Made by a program: the position numbers and the translations under genes. Below are positions 1,691 to 21,619 of a DNA stretch of 51,197 nt, one piece after another. How positions within the stretch are numbered: the stretch's first letter is position 1; every line of letters begins with the position of its first letter. The notes beneath the pieces are model-generated. The model made no database searches. It was not told the DNA's origin and worked only from the letters and a program-made list of their open reading frames with translations. Source of the stretch: a virus; IMG/VR virus record IMGVR_UViG_3300005663_000062, positions 1 to 51,197 of that record; one strand, written 5' to 3'.

Positions 1691-3244
1691 TTAAACCTCT
1701 TGCTTATACATCTTAATTGTTGTTACAAGATTATGTTTTGCATCAATAAAATCGGGACACATTGTTAATACTCTGTGCAGGCATTCGACGGCTCGTCTAT
1801 ATTCACCATTTATTGTATAACAAGCCGCCAAATTCATTAAAATGTGTATATGGTTAGGACTGCATTTTCTCGCGTACTCGAAAGACTCTAATGAATTATC
1901 TAAATCTCTCTTTGTTAGAAATGCAACTCCACGATAATAGGCCAGCGGCATTCCAGCCCTGTCAAGATTGGCTAAGAATGGTAAATTATCTGTTACCGAT
2001 ATAACTCTGTCCCAATTTATATTTCTGGCACGATATATTTCCACGCTCTTCATAGATGTCTGAAGTTTTATAGTAAATCCAATTACGCACAATACAAGAA
2101 GCGCGATAGCACCGGCCGTATAAACTCTCTTAAACTTAATCAAAGCAGGTTTGTAATCTTTCATAGCAAGGGCAAAGAATATCATTAACAAAAACCACAG
2201 ATACGCCCTATGGCTCGGAAACGTAAAACAAGCGAAGGTTATATAACCAGCTATTCCAGCCCTTATTGCTCCACGACTGTAATATAGAGCTAAAATAAAG
2301 AGCAGTAAGTAGCTTGCAAATCCAAATATTCCTATTTCTGACCATTCCTGAAGAAAGTCGTTATGCGCCCATCCGATAAGTTTATTTTCACCATTACTGC
2401 CAATCTTATAATTTATATTTGCCCTCGTTTCCGGAGATGAATACTTTGCGTATAGCGGGAATATCAATTTCCAGTTTCCAGCACCAACTCCGGCAGGATA
2501 GTCCTTAATCATAATTGCAGTCTGCTTCCATATCTCTAATCTCTGCCCTAACGAACTGGTATTGTAGATGTCATTGCCTTTGCAAACTATAACCCCTAAT
2601 AGCAATAGGCCGCACAATGAAGGAATAAGATATTTCCTGTTAGATAAAGCAAATACTATCAATGCTGCGAATAACGCTAACCAGCTCGAACGCGCTCTGA
2701 GTGAGATTATCACAAACAAACTTAATCCAATAGCTACTAAAGAAGGAATCTTCCATTCTTTGTAGTAGTAGCTGCACAGTATCATCAAAAGCACAATGGA
2801 TGCAGCATTGAGATTCTTGCTATCCATTATCCCGACCCTTACTGCAATTGATTTAGACGAGAACTCATAAATACCATACAAGCCAAGGCATATAGTTGTC
2901 AGAATAATGACCTTGGCAATATTCAATTTCTTCAAGAGAGTTGCCAAACAGAGCATAATCAACATTGCATTGAACATTGAAAATGACCGGGAAATACTCT
3001 CGCCTTTATTAACAGCGAAACATATCGAATATGTCAGCCATAACCAGTAAGCTAAGTATGCGAGAAATACAGGATGCTTTAAGACGCCGAAATCTACTTT
3101 TACGAGAACTAAAAGCATTAGCGTCATTACGCCAAGCATTAACTGCCTTGCGGCCAAGTCACGACCATCTACATAACCATCAACAGAGACGGCGAGACAA
3201 AGCACTAATCCTGCAATAAAAACTATATTGGCACACCTAAGCAT
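1691..3244 (-). CDS. O-antigen ligase/polymerase-like membrane protein with C-terminal TPRs
   Basis: About 517 residues with roughly ten hydrophobic segments. Wzy_C/O-antigen-ligase features: RARSSWL near residue 183, GVGAGNW near 252 and AHNDFLQEWSEIGIFG near 293, in a large periplasmic-loop context. Residues about 430-515 form TPR-like helices (YRGVAFLTKRDLDNSLESFEYA; then LAACYTINGEYRRAVECLH). Members transfer or polymerise undecaprenyl-linked glycan at the outer face of the inner membrane. Start chosen at ATG 3244 with GGTGGA upstream; the frame stays open to 3298. The gene overlaps the small membrane ORF upstream by 22 nt. It sits among capsid and tail genes, a remarkable place for host-envelope cargo. 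Family call confident, acceptor unknown. Confidence 0.85.
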   Translation of the reverse strand: MLRCANIVFIAGLVLCLAVSVDGYVDGRDLAARQLMLGVMTLMLLVLVKVDFGVLKHPVFLAYLAYWLWLTYSICFAVNKGESISRSFSMFNAMLIMLCLATLLKKLNIAKVIILTTICLGLYGIYEFSSKSIAVRVGIMDSKNLNAASIVLLMILCSYYYKEWKIPSLVAIGLSLFVIISLRARSSWLALFAALIVFALSNRKYLIPSLCGLLLLGVIVCKGNDIYNTSSLGQRLEIWKQTAIMIKDYPAGVGAGNWKLIFPLYAKYSSPETRANINYKIGSNGENKLIGWAHNDFLQEWSEIGIFGFASYLLLFILALYYSRGAIRAGIAGYITFACFTFPSHRAYLWFLLMIFFALAMKDYKPALIKFKRVYTAGAIALLVLCVIGFTIKLQTSMKSVEIYRARNINWDRVISVTDNLPFLANLDRAGMPLAYYRGVAFLTKRDLDNSLESFEYARKCSPNHIHILMNLAACYTINGEYRRAVECLHRVLTMCPDFIDAKHNLVTTIKMYKQEV

Positions 3245-3384
3245 CGAAGAATCCACCAAAATAAGGCTATCAGGAAACAAATAAGGCAAAGAGGCCAAAG
3301 AACTAATACTGCACCAAAGACAAATATAGTACGTATAACGTCTTTGGCCTCTAAACTATGCCTATTCTGTACAGGATAAGCCAT
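3223..3384 (-). CDS. Small membrane protein, 53 residues
   Basis: ATG at 3384, stop TAG at 3225-3223. The middle is a long hydrophobic stretch (IRTIFVFGAVLVLWPLCLI then CFLIALFWWIL) that could be one or two membrane segments. It starts two bases after the secreted beta-helix gene and its 3' end overlaps the ligase start by 22 nt, so the two are likely translated together. AGGAAAAG lies upstream at rather long spacing. It may assist the ligase in the membrane, like small Wzx/Wzy partner or Gtr-type proteins in seroconversion cassettes; this is inference from position. Confidence 0.6.
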   Translation of the reverse strand: MAYPVQNRHSLEAKDVIRTIFVFGAVLVLWPLCLICFLIALFWWILRCLGVPI

Positions 3385-16799: not shown

Positions 16800-17330
16800 T
16801 TATTCATGTGCTCGTATCTCGTAGTCCTGTTGATAGCCTGTGTCCGGCTCTGCGCTGAGTGTATCATCCGTTGATATGCCTACGCCTGTATATGGCCTGC
16901 CCGGACATACCTGCTCATAGTGCATGGCGTTGGCCATCCTTGTAGTGCGTGCCTGCTCATCGACTGTGCCGTCCGGGTTGGTAGTCAGACGGTTGATGCC
17001 AGCTACGATAGATGGATGTAGCTCGGGCTCATCGCCTATCCTCGGCGGTGCTGCTCCTGCTCTCTTGGCCTTAGCTCTACCACTCCAGGCACATGGGCCA
17101 CAGCATACGAGTATCGGCTCTATCTCATTACCACAACACCAACAATGTCCGGGCTTGACAAGCTGTGTGCGCTGTCTGTGCGCCTTGTCATTAGGGCCAA
17201 GCTTATCAGGCACGGTAACGCCTCCATTCTCATAGGTAACGCCTTCATTAAGTAACGCCTTTTGCTTGGCTTTGTAACGCCTTTGGCGCTCGGCGTTAGC
17301 CTCTTTCTGTTTATCCTTGTCTTTATACAT
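16800..17330 (-). CDS. Protein with basic N-terminus and zinc-binding centre
   Basis: 176 residues. A highly basic start (KQKEANAERQRRYKAKQKAL), then repeated GVT segments, then CWCCGNEIEPILVCCGPC (a CxxC...CxxC zinc site) and an Ala/Pro/Thr-rich tail. This layout is found in phage proteins next to terS. The first 120 nt of the gene carry four copies of a 9-bp DNA repeat placed in three different reading frames. It begins two bases after the terS stop. DNA binding is plausible. Confidence 0.65.
   Translation of the reverse strand: MYKDKDKQKEANAERQRRYKAKQKALLNEGVTYENGGVTVPDKLGPNDKAHRQRTQLVKPGHCWCCGNEIEPILVCCGPCAWSGRAKAKRAGAAPPRIGDEPELHPSIVAGINRLTTNPDGTVDEQARTTRMANAMHYEQVCPGRPYTGVGISTDDTLSAEPDTGYQQDYEIRAHE
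17215..17282. repeat. Four copies of a 9-bp direct repeat beside terS (possible pac/iteron)
   Basis: GTAACGCCT (AGGCGTTAC on the minus strand) at 17215-17223, 17236-17244, 17252-17260 and 17274-17282. In the overlapping gene the repeats are read in all three codon phases (RRY; KAL; GVT), so conservation is of DNA rather than protein. A partial inverse copy is at 17291-17297. Confidence 0.7.
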
Positions 17331-17755: not shown

Positions 17756-17853
17756 TAAACCTCATTATGTGTGAATAAAGCCAGATAAAACTTACAAACA
17801 TACTTTGCAGATAAGCCACAAACAAAACCTATTGTCAACATAATATATTCCAT
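17755..17853 (-). CDS. 32-residue membrane micropeptide coupled to terS
   Basis: ATG 17853, AGAGG upstream, stop overlapping the terS start (TAATG). Product MEYIMLTIGFVCGLSAKYVC plus a short tail: a hydrophobic segment that could span a membrane. Coupling suggests it sets terS translation. Confidence 0.5.
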   Translation of the reverse strand: MEYIMLTIGFVCGLSAKYVCKFYLALFTHNEV

Positions 17854-17871
17854 TCTTACCTCTTATCTTAT

Positions 17872-17970
17872 TCACGTTATTTCGTGTTTGTTTGTAGGGC
17901 AGGAGGAGTGATCAACCTGCCCAAGTGATAAAATATTCATCAATATTTCATAGTTTGTTTTCACCTCCTT
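17872..17970 (-). promoter_or_regulatory. Leader with perfect Shine-Dalgarno, 3-codon and 22-codon ORFs, and hairpin
   Basis: Minus strand AAGGAGGTGA (17970-17961) is a full match to the 16S 3' end. It is followed by ATG AAA TAT TGA at 17951-17940 and, by TGATG overlap, a 22-codon ORF (17940-17872) starting MNILSLGQVD. Within it GGGCAGG (minus, near 17923) pairs with CCTGCCC (near 17904), and the loop carries a CCTCCT stretch able to pair with the Shine-Dalgarno. Looks like a translational leader for the terS region; may equally be a remnant gene. Confidence 0.4.
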
Positions 17971-18023
17971 ATCCTGGTATTTGGTTGTTATGTTTATGTT
18001 TCATGTATGGGCTTTGTTATTGC

Positions 18024-18203
18024 TTAAATAGCTTCTAATACTGCTCTTACGGTTGCTCTGTCAAATTCTTTCGTCGGTTCGTCGAGTAGTGAATAGTCTC
18101 CATTAGTCCAATATGGCTTGCCGTGCTTTATCTCATACTGCTTGCAATACGCTTTATGCACTACTTCAGATATTCTTTCAATCTCTTCTGTCTTCGCTTC
18201 CAT
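18024..18203 (-). CDS. Small RyR-domain-like protein
   Basis: 59 residues from ATG 18203. IERISEVVHKAYCKQYEIKH then PYWTN and TVRAVLEAI resembles the short RyR-like domain of phage proteins (pattern: IA..vHe.nrAyc ... W ... S...GV). That domain's role in phages is unknown. The spacer 17971-18023 downstream has no gene. Confidence 0.5.
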   Translation of the reverse strand: MEAKTEEIERISEVVHKAYCKQYEIKHGKPYWTNGDYSLLDEPTKEFDRATVRAVLEAI

Positions 18204-18212
18204 TCTAACGCC

Positions 18213-18359
18213 TTATTCTCTCCATGTGGGATAACCACAGTAACATGACTGCTCTTGCCTTAGAATACCGCATTCAGGACATCGCCATCCACTTGCCATT
18301 ACTTTACCTGATACTTCGATTGTTTCCCACTTCCATTCTTTTTCAAGTATGCTATCCAT
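18213..18359 (-). CDS. Small zinc-ribbon protein
   Basis: 48 residues from ATG 18359, which follows the upstream stop directly; the frame is open further upstream to 18428 but that would overlap by 68 nt. The pattern WRCPECGILRQEQSCYCGYP gives CxxC-x8-CxC. Unknown function. Confidence 0.55.
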   Translation of the reverse strand: MDSILEKEWKWETIEVSGKVMASGWRCPECGILRQEQSCYCGYPTWRE

Positions 18360-18360
18360 T

Positions 18361-18594
18361 CTAACTAAAACTTTCCATCCATTCTGTTTCGTCAATTTCA
18401 GTGTAATTAGTTGCTGAGCTTTCGTCAAATCCTACGGCCAGGAAATTCTCATAGCCATTTACGCCTGTTTGCTCTGCAATGTGTGTCCAACCATAAAGCG
18501 TAGTCCTGCAGGCCGTTATGATGTGTAGCTTGTGGCCGGTAGTGTGTTTGTAGTATCTACCTATTTCAAACGTCAATTCTTTTGTCTTTTCCAT
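18361..18594 (-). CDS. Conserved phage protein (IGxYYxHTxGxK family)
   Basis: 77 residues. LTFEIGRYYKHTTGHKLHII, CRTTLYGWTHIAEQTG, then FDESSATNYTEIDETEW and FS at the end fit a small beta-barrel protein seen in many phage early regions (IG.YY.HT.G..m.i......T..Y...l.AE ... S..NW.EI..eeW...F). Function unknown. Confidence 0.7.
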   Translation of the reverse strand: MEKTKELTFEIGRYYKHTTGHKLHIITACRTTLYGWTHIAEQTGVNGYENFLAVGFDESSATNYTEIDETEWMESFS

Positions 18595-19819: not shown

Positions 19820-20023
19820 AACTTTTCACCCAGACTACAAACGGGATAAGACCGTTTTAATGACACGATACGAATAAACTTCTGCTCTTGCGTCAATACC
19901 TTAGCTAATTGTATATCCCTTTAGCAGCCTTATCCCCGGGTATGAATCTGTAGGATAATCGTCTGTGTGGCATTTGTTAGTATCGAGCAGCATAGACATA
20001 TTTTGACCTTACGTGTCTTTGGT

Positions 20024-20115
20024 CGAGCGGAGCTTTGTATATCGTCGCTCTGTTACAGTTATAAGAAAAAAGACAGGCCATCCGAGTTTCTGATATACAA
20101 AGCGGGTGACCTGTC
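20024..20115 (-). ncRNA. Interlocked-helix (pseudoknot-like) leader element with terminator-type hairpin
   Basis: Helix b is 12 perfect bp (20032-20043 with 20092-20103). Helix a (20025-20029 with 20046-20050) and helix c (20072-20077 with 20110-20115) each interleave with b, in the order a b a' c b' c'. On the minus strand helix c is followed by six Us (20071-20066), like a long-loop terminator. It lies just downstream of the leftward promoter, so it would be at the 5' end of leftward RNA, where cis-acting antitermination or attenuation elements sit. Confidence 0.5.
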
Positions 20116-20150
20116 ATTATATCTTTTATCATATTACTCCATCATTCTGT

Positions 20151-20180
20151 AATATGTTCGTTTTCGACGCCGTGTGTCAA
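20151..20180 (-). promoter_or_regulatory. Leftward promoter
   Basis: Minus strand TTGACA at 20180-20175, 18-nt spacer, CATATT at 20156-20151. The -35 is consensus, the -10 matches four of six. RNA would start near 20144. Confidence 0.5.
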
Positions 20181-20204
20181 TTCGACAGCCTGCTTATTCG
20201 ACGC
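20163..20204 (+). repeat. Three TTCGAC repeats
   Basis: TTCGACGC 20163-20170, TTCGACAG 20181-20188, TTCGACGC 20197-20204, spaced 18 and 16 bp. They surround the -35 of the leftward promoter and may be an operator. Confidence 0.45.
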
Positions 20205-20223
20205 AGTCACGACGATAAAACCT

Positions 20224-20253
20224 ATTATAAATCACAAACGCGCAATAAAGCAA
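20224..20253 (-). promoter_or_regulatory. Second possible leftward promoter
   Basis: Minus strand perfect TATAAT (20229-20224) with a poor -35 TTGCTT at 20253-20248, spacer 18. Confidence 0.35.
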
Positions 20254-20356
20254 ATGTATTCTAAAATAATCTCTTATTTTCTTATAAATATACTCCTTGA
20301 TATTGAGCCAATAACAGCGATATTGATACAAAATATTAACTTGACGAATAATTTTC

Positions 20357-20385
20357 TTTACAAGTGAGTAAATATTGACGATAAT
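20357..20385 (+). promoter_or_regulatory. Rightward promoter of the plus-strand island
   Basis: TTTACA 20357-20362, 17-nt spacer, GATAAT 20380-20385: five of six matches in both boxes. Start expected near 20392, and the TCGACCAAA motif (20399-20407) follows at once, a natural operator position. Confidence 0.65.
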
Positions 20386-20398
20386 ACTTTTATGTTAA

Positions 20399-20407
20399 TC
20401 GACCAAA
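20399..20407 (+). promoter_or_regulatory. TCGACCAAA motif, copy in leader of first rightward gene
   Basis: Within TTAATCGACCAAATTAA, 26 nt before ATG 20434. Other copies: 20018-20026 (minus), 20694-20702 (plus), 21240-21248 (minus). Confidence 0.55.
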
Positions 20408-20433
20408 TTAATCACTTATGAAGGGAATTGAAA

Positions 20434-20646
20434 ATGTACTACCACGTCAAAACCAATTACGACCAGTTAAAACCAAACGACAGATTTACTGTAAGATACG
20501 ATAACAAGCTTATGACTTGGCAGGAATACCTTGAAGCCAAAAGGCACGGACTTTGCAAGGTGCTTTCTGATATGTGGGCAGCAAATCAACACGATAGCAA
20601 AGTATCGTTTACCCTTAACTATCCTGTCTGGAAATGGCAGGCTTAA
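20434..20646 (+). CDS. Small protein, first gene of the rightward island
   Basis: 70 residues. ATG 20434 chosen for AAGGGA at 7 nt; a TTG two codons upstream is too close to it. Sequence MYYHVKTNYDQLKPNDRFTV ... MTWQEYLEAKRHG shows a small alpha/beta protein without known motif. Probably early-expressed given its promoter. Confidence 0.65.
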   Translation: MYYHVKTNYDQLKPNDRFTVRYDNKLMTWQEYLEAKRHGLCKVLSDMWAANQHDSKVSFTLNYPVWKWQA

Positions 20647-20690
20647 AATCCGCAGGGCGGGGATTTGCGAATCCTCTGCCTTATGTATTT
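20647..20690 (+). other. Competing hairpins between the first two rightward genes
   Basis: GGATT at about 20661-20665 can pair with AATCC upstream (20647-20651) or with AATCC downstream (20670-20674, loop TGCG, extended by GGC/GCC). The second form ends before a T-rich stretch. A terminator/antiterminator pair is possible. Confidence 0.4.
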
Positions 20691-20731
20691 TAATCGACCA
20701 AACATTAACTAAACAGAAACGAGGTGGAATT

Positions 20732-21205
20732 ATGAGTACGAGAAGTCAAATTGTAATTAAAGGTTGTTTTGATGATGAAATAGTATTTTATCGTCATTGT
20801 GACGGCTATCCAGAAGTATCTATGGCTCCATTACAGAAGCTAATGGACTGGATGCGCCGTGGAATCATCAGGGATAACGCCGAGCAGGCTGCTGGATGGC
20901 TTATTCTTATCGGAGCAATAGAATACGCTACAATTCCAGAATATGAGCTTGAGCCGAACGACAAGGCTTGGAAACGATATGGCTTGATTGAGACTATCAA
21001 AGACCCTACCGACTGGAAGTGCGGAGCCTATGAGCCAGCAACTTGTCGCCACGGAGATATTGAATTTCTTTATATCCTTGATTTGAAAGAGAAAACAATA
21101 TCTTGTTACACAACACATTTTGACGGCGTGGGGTTCCCAGACAAAGAAAAAGACAAGCTCCAGTTCGTCGATACTGCCGAAAATCCGTGGAAAGGCAAAA
21201 GCTAA
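20732..21205 (+). CDS. Conserved phage protein of the MSTRSxI...YRHxDGYP family
   Basis: 157 residues. MSTRSQIVIKGCFDDEIVFY RHCDGYPE at the N-terminus identifies a small family common in phages and some bacteria (MSTR..i ... vYrHwDGYPe). The remainder includes WLILIGAIEYATI and FLYILDLKEKTISCY. Its role is unknown. ATG 20732 has GAGGTGG at good spacing; a TCGACCAAA motif lies 29 nt before it. Confidence 0.7.
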   Translation: MSTRSQIVIKGCFDDEIVFYRHCDGYPEVSMAPLQKLMDWMRRGIIRDNAEQAAGWLILIGAIEYATIPEYELEPNDKAWKRYGLIETIKDPTDWKCGAYEPATCRHGDIEFLYILDLKEKTISCYTTHFDGVGFPDKEKDKLQFVDTAENPWKGKS

Positions 21206-21214
21206 ACACAAACC

Positions 21215-21277
21215 GCTTGCCATCGGCTCAATTCTCTGATTTGGTCGATTGGTTTACAAGCCGGTGGCAGGCTTTTT
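21215..21277 (+). terminator. Long-loop terminator in the rightward island
   Basis: A 14-bp stem (21215-21228 with 21259-21272; two G-U pairs on the plus strand only) encloses a 30-nt loop and is followed by TTTTT (21273-21277). The loop contains an inverted TCGACCAAA motif (21240-21248). Placed between the 157-residue gene and the zinc-ribbon gene. Confidence 0.6.
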
Positions 21278-21293
21278 ATATTGGAGAATGATT

Positions 21294-21461
21294 ATGAAAC
21301 TTTGTCCAAAATGCAAAAATGGAGTCTTGTTTTTCAGCACTAATCTTGAAGATTGGGTTTGCAAAACTTGCGGTTATGCCGAAAAGAAGGATAGCTCATT
21401 GAAGGAGAATAAAAGATGGATGCCAACCAGAAAAAATTGCTTGCAGAAACAGAAGGAATAA
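21294..21461 (+). CDS. Mini zinc-ribbon protein
   Basis: 55 residues from ATG 21294 (GGAG at 7 nt). MKLCPKCKNGVLFFSTNLED WVCKTCGYAEK is a textbook two-knuckle CxxC-x17-CxxC ribbon, as in TFIIS/RPB9-like or RNA-polymerase-binding mini-proteins. Basic tail. Its end overlaps the next gene by 46 nt. Confidence 0.65.
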   Translation: MKLCPKCKNGVLFFSTNLEDWVCKTCGYAEKKDSSLKENKRWMPTRKNCLQKQKE

Positions 21462-21619
21462 TTGACCAAATCAAAAAACAACACTGGCTCAATGTGCATT
21501 TTAGAGCGTTTGAATTAGCAAATAATGCTTGGAAAGAACATATAAGAGCAAATGCAAGAGTAGGAGCTAAAGAAGTTGATAGTCCAGCAGGTGCAGTCCT
21601 GGACGATAGACTAAACTAA
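21416..21619 (+). CDS. Small helical protein
   Basis: 67 residues, GAAGGAG upstream of ATG 21416. Mostly helix (KKLLAETEGIIDQIKKQHW; FELANNAWKEHIRANARVG). Unknown. Confidence 0.6.
   Translation: MDANQKKLLAETEGIIDQIKKQHWLNVHFRAFELANNAWKEHIRANARVGAKEVDSPAGAVLDDRLN

What the first reader, a model, noticed from the sequence alone, without database searches (positions are those of the whole stretch)
20018..21248. Four TCGACCAAA motifs across the control region and rightward island
Copies at 20018-20026 (minus), 20399-20407 (plus), 20694-20702 (plus), 21240-21248 (minus). Two precede genes at nearly equal distance within a larger shared block (TAT.TTAATCGACCAAA..TTAA), one is in a terminator loop, one in the leftward leader. 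Chance of four 9-mers in 1.2 kb is small. No regulator gene is recognisable, so the binder may be novel or host-encoded.
Basis: seen in the sequence. Interest (0 to 1): 0.7.

Follow-up and report, generated by a model that had tools for sequence, protein, structure and literature searches.

The report
Phage leader RNA pairs with terminator
A repeated 9-letter word near a phage's main switch turns out to be one half of an RNA lock and key: the start of an early message is complementary to the loop of a stop signal further along it, and related phages keep the match although they spell it differently, which suggests a self-contained RNA switch for early genes.

Summary
In detail: TCGACCAAA occurs four times, only at the stated places (0.44 expected). 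The reading as a protein-binding site is not supported. In RNA terms three copies are sense (two rightward leaders, one leftward leader). The fourth is antisense and lies in the 30-nt loop of a 14-bp intrinsic terminator. Six related uncultured phages have the same layout with different letters: a start-codon region (element A), then a terminator whose loop (A') complements A, then early genes. Matching each A to each loop, the true partners are the best of all 5040 assignments. A leader reading frame runs open through the terminator in 6 of 6 relatives; other frames are open in 1 of 12. The A:A' state and the terminator state have similar predicted energy, and A:A' can form first. Best explanation: a transcription attenuator in which a terminator loop grips the leader's start region. 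In this window two genes lie between A and A', and A is present twice (copies 2, 3). A trans, immunity-like role (as P4 CI or P1 c4 RNA) is possible but untested. I found no match in Rfam or in the papers searched.

The parts
20357..20385 (+). rightward sigma70-like promoter TTTACA-17-GATAAT
   Evidence: 10 of 12 consensus matches; -10 box and its distance to an ATG kept in relatives
20392..20421 (+). near-leaderless 9-codon leader ORF MLIDQINHL, start codon 6 nt after the -10 box
   Evidence: read from sequence; spacing; longer leader ORFs in relatives
20397..20408 (+). element A, copy 2 (finding's 20399-20407), sense, at the 5' end of the rightward transcript
   Evidence: pairs copy 4 with probability 0.92-0.96 in an 893-nt model transcript
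20434..20646 (+). gene 1, 70 aa; its SD region GGGAATTG also pairs the terminator loop (CAATTCTC)
   Evidence: duplex
20651..20685 (+). hairpin, weak terminator-like, directly before copy 3
20692..20702 (+). element A, copy 3 (finding's 20694-20702), sense, leader of gene 2
   Evidence: duplex with loop -20.2 kcal/mol
20732..21205 (+). gene 2, 157 aa, no family match
21215..21280 (+). intrinsic terminator: 14-bp stem 21215-21228 / 21259-21272, then T-rich tail
21229..21258 (+). terminator loop with A' (copy 4, 21240-21248, antisense to copies 1-3)
   Evidence: loop identical in relative L049; 0 of 300 shuffled loops pair as well with the upstream 974 nt
20151..20180 (-). leftward promoter TTGACA-18-CATATT
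19977..20132 (-). 51-aa leftward leader ORF that runs through a terminator and copy 1
20072..20115 (-). leftward intrinsic terminator; loop CTTTGTATATC complements 20043-20033 downstream
   Evidence: 3 of 300 shuffled loops as good
20018..20026 (-). copy 1, sense in the leftward leader RNA; could be met only in trans by the rightward loop
   Evidence: duplex -17.3 kcal/mol; not noticed in relatives

Best explanation
The copies are the two halves of an RNA switch. Element A (copies 2 and 3) lies at the start of early leader RNAs. Element A' (copy 4) is its antisense in the loop of a downstream intrinsic terminator. SHOWN: complementarity, co-variation among 7 phages, fixed order (promoter, start codon with A, terminator with A' in its loop, genes), and a leader ORF open through the terminator in 6 relatives. 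INFERRED: (1) in nascent RNA A pairs with A' before the terminator's 3' strand is made and hinders the terminator, so early genes are read through; (2) a ribosome on the leader start, or anything else that occupies A, changes this outcome; (3) once formed, A:A' also hides the leader start region, so leader translation and transcription set each other. In this window the hairpin no longer directly follows A. Genes 1 and 2 lie between, A is present twice, and the loop also covers gene 1's SD region, so here the element would control the gene 1/gene 2 operon and readthrough beyond it. My confidence is about 0.9 for RNA pairing as the reason for the repeats, 0.55 for attenuation as the function, and 0.4 for the stated sign (A favours readthrough).
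For: Cognate A-loop pairing sum -160.5 kcal/mol, best of 5040 assignments. Helix columns -5 to +7 are paired in 5-7 of 7 phages, with 2-3 Watson-Crick types in 10 of these 13 columns. L052 and L146 differ by a double change that keeps the pair (column 2). Two scans whose patterns contained neither A nor A' brought in L146 and L086/L133, which also have matching A/A'. Loop-to-upstream pairing against shuffled loops: window 0/300 (974 nt upstream), L049 0/300 (505 nt), L052 0/300 (216 nt), G001 3 and 7 of 300 (210 nt, two runs); at 250 nt upstream only, the window gives 18/300 and L049 69/300. Leader frame open in 6 of 6, other frames in 1 of 12. -10 box to ATG 6-13 nt in 7 of 7. A:A' and terminator states lie about 2-7 kcal/mol apart, and nascent RNA ending at A' folds as A:A' in 6 of 6. 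Window: pairing probability 0.92-0.96 over 893 nt. Of 71 terminator-like hairpins in the held contigs, the largest upstream match (16) is L052's element.
Against: L049 keeps the window's terminator loop letter for letter, yet has no TCGACCAAA target anywhere in its 36.9-kb contig; its terminator is also damaged there (5' strand shortened, read from sequence). In the window A and A' are 830 and 537 nt apart with genes between, unlike the close spacing of relatives. L065 and L146 were not picked up as terminators by the scan, and L065's stem is short. In nested folding the terminator still wins in some relatives (L052, L146, L065, L049), so the sign is not fixed. The A core G-R-C is shared, so co-variation rests on the flanks. 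No expression data exist.
Confidence: 0.55

Rival explanations
1. Trans-acting self-antisense RNA. The short terminated leader (about 100 nt in relatives) accumulates and its loop A' binds A in other nascent transcripts, and in the window copy 1 of the leftward leader. It would act as negative feedback or as immunity against a second phage of the same type, like P4 CI RNA or P1/P7 c4 RNA.
For: Several A targets per loop (window copies 2 and 3, perhaps 1; two in L049). Each phage has its own A/A' letters in a conserved frame, as expected for immunity specificity. Known precedents read in passages: CI RNA pairs seqA and seqC (PMC4825925); c4 RNA pairs RBS regions and sets P1/P7 heteroimmunity (PMC12197685).
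Against: In relatives A and A' sit in the same short RNA and would pair in cis first. No sign that a separate RNA is made. Copy 1 has only the 9-nt match and was not noticed in relatives.
Confidence: 0.2
2. DNA operators: A and A' are inverted binding sites of a phage or host protein whose specificity differs between phages.
For: Inverted copies near divergent promoters; four exact copies in the window.
Against: A' lies in a terminator loop and A at the transcript start in each member; orientations follow transcription. Mismatches in the helices are mostly G-U (6 G-U, 2 A-C, 1 other over 9 rows), though these numbers are small. No regulator gene was recognised beside the sites in the window.
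Confidence: 0.07
3. Translation control or mRNA processing only: A:A' hides start codons/SDs or makes a double-stranded site for RNase III, without a role in termination.
For: A' covers the start-codon region of the leader ORF in relatives, and the SD region of gene 1 in the window. Helices of 11-18 bp.
Against: The loop is in each member that of a terminator, with a GGCTTTATTTA tail in five of them, which such a role would not need.
Confidence: 0.15
4. Chance and short-range duplication: the repeats are leftovers of leader duplication and inversion with no function.
For: L049 keeps the loop without a target; copies 2 and 3 look like one duplicated leader.
Against: Different letters but matching halves in 7 phages.
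Confidence: 0.03

Closest known systems
Phage P4 CI RNA immunity (seqA / seqB loop / seqC)
   Same: Phage early leader; an RNA antisense to two sense sites in the same leader region; control by transcription termination (passage read in PMC4825925; seqB in a loop is recalled)
   Different: CI is a processed trans-acting RNA of a lysogen; here A' is in an intrinsic terminator loop, A is at a near-leaderless start codon, there is a leader ORF, and no trans action is shown
P1/P7 c4 antisense RNA (Rfam C4)
   Same: Antisense pieces in loops that block a ribosome binding site and set immunity specificity (PMC12197685)
   Different: No Rfam match here; different structure; the target is a leader start in cis
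Translation-coupled transcription attenuators (trp/his type; recalled)
   Same: Leader ORF through a terminator; two alternative RNA states
   Different: The alternative helix pairs the terminator loop with the leader start instead of one arm of the terminator stem; no run of regulatory codons seen
Gifsy-1 IsrK (dual sRNA/mRNA leader)
   Same: Terminated leader versus read-through mRNA in a phage (PMC4825925, abstract start and passages)
   Different: IsrK is a prophage RNA with another logic; no sequence comparison was made

Membership tests
Transcription attenuator (general) | intrinsic terminator between promoter and genes | tested here: met
   in relatives; in the window it lies after two genes
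Transcription attenuator (general) | alternative helix that competes with the terminator | tested here: met
   nested folding only: the two states are near in energy in 6 of 6 relatives
Transcription attenuator (general) | regulated readthrough | not testable with these tools
   needs RNA data
Translation-coupled attenuator | translated leader ORF overlapping the terminator | tested here: inconclusive
   frame open in 6 of 6 relatives, other frames 1 of 12; translation itself not shown; in the window the leader ORF is 9 codons and does not reach the terminator
P4 CI-like immunity RNA | loop antisense to sites before and after it | tested here: not met
   strong targets found only upstream of the rightward loops; a 15-nt match with G-U pairs downstream in the window (21459-21474) is weaker, 29 of 300 shuffles
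P4 CI-like immunity RNA | stable processed trans-acting RNA | not testable with these tools
   no expression data
Rfam C4 antisense RNA | match to the covariance model | tested here: not met
   no C4 match in the window or 5 relatives
Protein operator | same site conserved in relatives | tested here: not met
   TCGACCAAA absent in 9 of 10; single in 6 and absent in 2 of 8 further related contigs

The most novel reading that the evidence does not exclude
A family of RNA switches in a group of uncultured phages in which each genome carries its own leader/terminator-loop 'key pair'. The pair controls early transcription in cis and, through the terminated leader, shuts down later arrivals of the same key type in trans: an RNA-only superinfection immunity with fast-changing specificity.
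Probability: 0.18. Interest if true: 0.85.

Novelty: new variant of a known kind. Interest (0 to 1): 0.62.

Why it matters
It would be a compact, protein-free way to gate phage early genes: a terminator whose loop is the antisense of the transcript's own start. The sequences differ between phages while the match is kept, so the element invites direct tests (paired-change rescue, comparison of cognate and non-cognate pairs in reporters) and may be findable elsewhere only by complementarity, since the sequence and family searches here missed it.

Tried and rejected
Sequence conservation of the word: exact scan of IMG/VR for TATNTTAATCGACCAAA gave 18 hits, about what chance gives by my rough estimate; only L014 was read. 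Close relatives by gene 2 protein: none. Phage database by DNA: no match near, only short weak ones distant. Other control regions read by eye without seeing the element: G003, G010, L051, L055, L057, L066, L067; L054 and L068 were not read. Of 34 genome-contig hits of the promoter+tail pattern none has the element; L194 ranked first on pairing score but is a 22-bp hairpin in another context. L188 and L189 fail too. Leftward counterpart (loop complementary to downstream RNA): seen in window and L052 only, not in L049 or G001. Formal pair counting on a MAFFT alignment (A4) was dropped because the A side aligns out of register; I used a helix-anchored table instead, whose register I chose by hand. 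G-U versus A-C as a test of RNA against DNA is suggestive only. Left out of the 7 phages: L133 (same sequence as L086 where read), L062, L058 and L161 (same contig or same element as L049), L063 (contig of L052), L053/L064 (near copy of L052's csrA region; contig ends before the element).

Full report
OBSERVATION. TCGACCAAA occurs at 20018-20026 (-), 20399-20407 (+), 20694-20702 (+) and 21240-21248 (-) and nowhere else in the 51,197-base virus record. Expected 0.44; 0 of 100 shuffles reach 4. With look-elsewhere over all 9-mers, four 9-mers reach >=4 copies in 1231 b in the window; in shuffles 2 of 100 have any. The other three are AGAATGGAA, AGGCGTTAC and AAGGCGTTA, so the cluster is significant but not unique. 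The genome encodes a podovirus-type head-tail connector and tail proteins; the best-ranked connector in a named phage is 31% identical (Pelagibacter phage HTVC034P).

ANATOMY. The rightward promoter is TTTACA-17-GATAAT at 20357-20385. Copy 2 begins 7 nt after the first base of an ATG that lies 6 nt after the -10 box. Copy 3 precedes gene 2 at nearly the same distance and follows a hairpin. Copy 4 lies in the 30-nt loop of a 14-bp terminator followed by TTTTTATATT. So the rightward RNA holds UCGACCAAA twice and UUUGGUCGA once, in a loop. The loop pairs with the copy 2 leader at -26.6 to -28.0 kcal/mol, including CAATTCTC with GGGAATTG in the SD region of gene 1, and with copy 3 at -20.9. In a model transcript of 893 nt, copy 2 pairs with the loop with probability 0.92-0.96, copy 3 with 0.0, and the terminator stem with 0.0, because nested folding cannot hold both. 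Copy 1 is sense in the leftward leader; duplex with the loop -17.3.

RELATIVES. The connector led to 10 loci in 10 contigs; the closest is G001, 76% identical. A 56-aa gene left of the control region led to 9, a csrA pair to 7. Two scans for the conserved frame, without A or A', led to L146 and L086/L133. In seven distinct phages (window, G001, L049, L052, L065, L086, L146) an early leader segment A complements the loop A' of a following terminator: window AATCGACCAAAT; L052 GATTACTCGACTAAA; L146 GATTACTCGGCTAAA; L086 CCGACTAAGAC; L065 ACGCTGGCAGGC; G001 CAGTATGAA..GGACCAA; L049 TTGAAAGGACTA and, for the same loop, ACTGAAGGGACTA before the first gene. The matrix of every A against every loop has its best total at the cognate assignment, 1 of 5040. 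The closest non-cognate is L146's A with L052's loop (-22.9 against -21.7 for its own loop). In a helix-anchored table, columns -5 to +7 are paired in 5-7 of 7 with up to three Watson-Crick types; columns 1 and 3 (G-C, C-G) never vary. The anchoring was chosen by me. Structural genes are far less alike: the connector was found in 3 of 6 contigs searched (L146, L086, L133, L065, L049, L052) at 22-26% identity, the capsid in 1 of 6, so the element sits in quite different phages. Several of these contigs are fragments.

LEADER ORF. From the ATG at A a frame runs open through the terminator in 6 of 6 relatives with 32-49 codons. Of the 12 other frames 1 is open. In G001 and L065 its stop overlaps the next gene's start (ATGA), read. 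In the window this ORF is only 9 codons (MLIDQINHL) and ends with the same letters as L049's longer one (TTTAATCACTTATGA against ATTAATCACTTATGA), as if the hairpin between had been lost while a hairpin with the matching loop stands after gene 2. That history is inference.

MECHANISM. In the six relatives, nascent RNA ending at A' folds as A:A' (11-17 nt of A paired), and the two full-length states are close in energy: terminator against A:A' -24.1/-22.4, -26.2/-19.8, -20.8/-25.4, -20.8/-24.3, -22.5/-29.6, -22.4/-19.1 for L052, L146, L086, L065, G001, L049. The gap between A' and the terminator's 3' strand is 1-10 nt. I therefore favour an attenuator in which A:A', formed first, hinders the terminator, and in which occupation of A (for example by a ribosome at the leader start) changes the result. 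The sign is not settled: unconstrained nested folding favours the terminator in L052, L146, L065 and L049, and A:A' in L086 and G001. A trans role by the terminated leader is open.

AGAINST. L049 keeps the window's loop exactly but has no TCGACCAAA elsewhere in its contig. An 8-nt partner (TCGACCAA) lies inside the preceding gene, and its terminator stem is shortened (read). This fits decay of a unit, but equally shows that the loop can persist without its target. The long distance in the window also weakens a cis role there. The leftward pair (loop and downstream segment) stands out in the window (3 of 300) and L052 (0 of 300), but not in L049 or G001.

KNOWN THINGS. No Rfam family matches at gathering score in the window, and permissive scans of the control region and of five relatives give only sub-threshold, implausible hits, such as mir-16 at 24.1 bits against 36.5 needed. 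Nine paper searches were run; in their listings I saw no description of a phage terminator loop antisense to its own leader start. Only open-licence papers are held, so this is weak. P4 CI RNA and P1/P7 c4 RNA are the nearest precedents (passages read).

VERDICT. The repeats are real and most likely the visible part of an RNA pairing switch, not a protein site. It works like an attenuator and has the anatomy of one in relatives; regulated readthrough is untested.

Noticed in passing
L049 8979-9185; L052 2930-3133; L065 1805-1996: A phage-encoded CsrA (Pfam PF02599 for L049 and L052) is the first leftward gene next to this control region in three relatives; I found none in the window by motif.
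   Followed up: partly
window 20072-20115 and 20032-20043 (-); L052 around 3113 (+): Leftward terminators whose loops complement RNA just downstream (11 nt each), a mirror of the rightward design.
   Followed up: partly
window 1691-3298 (-): Protein with O-antigen ligase (Wzy_C) and TPR matches among structural genes; a 42% identical relative in G001.
   Followed up: no
L052, L065, L086 between rightward genes: A recurrent intergenic hairpin AACAGCC...CGCTCCGGCGTATGCTGTT in several relatives.
   Followed up: no
window 17215-17275 and 17848-18590: Two other local 9-mer clusters, AGGCGTTAC (closely spaced) and AGAATGGAA (near leftward gene starts).
   Followed up: no
L049 rc-orientation 1818-1916: The leader ORF MKLERTTIKRSHRAISLLVLSVCLVWALFNHL looks like a small membrane peptide.
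   Followed up: no
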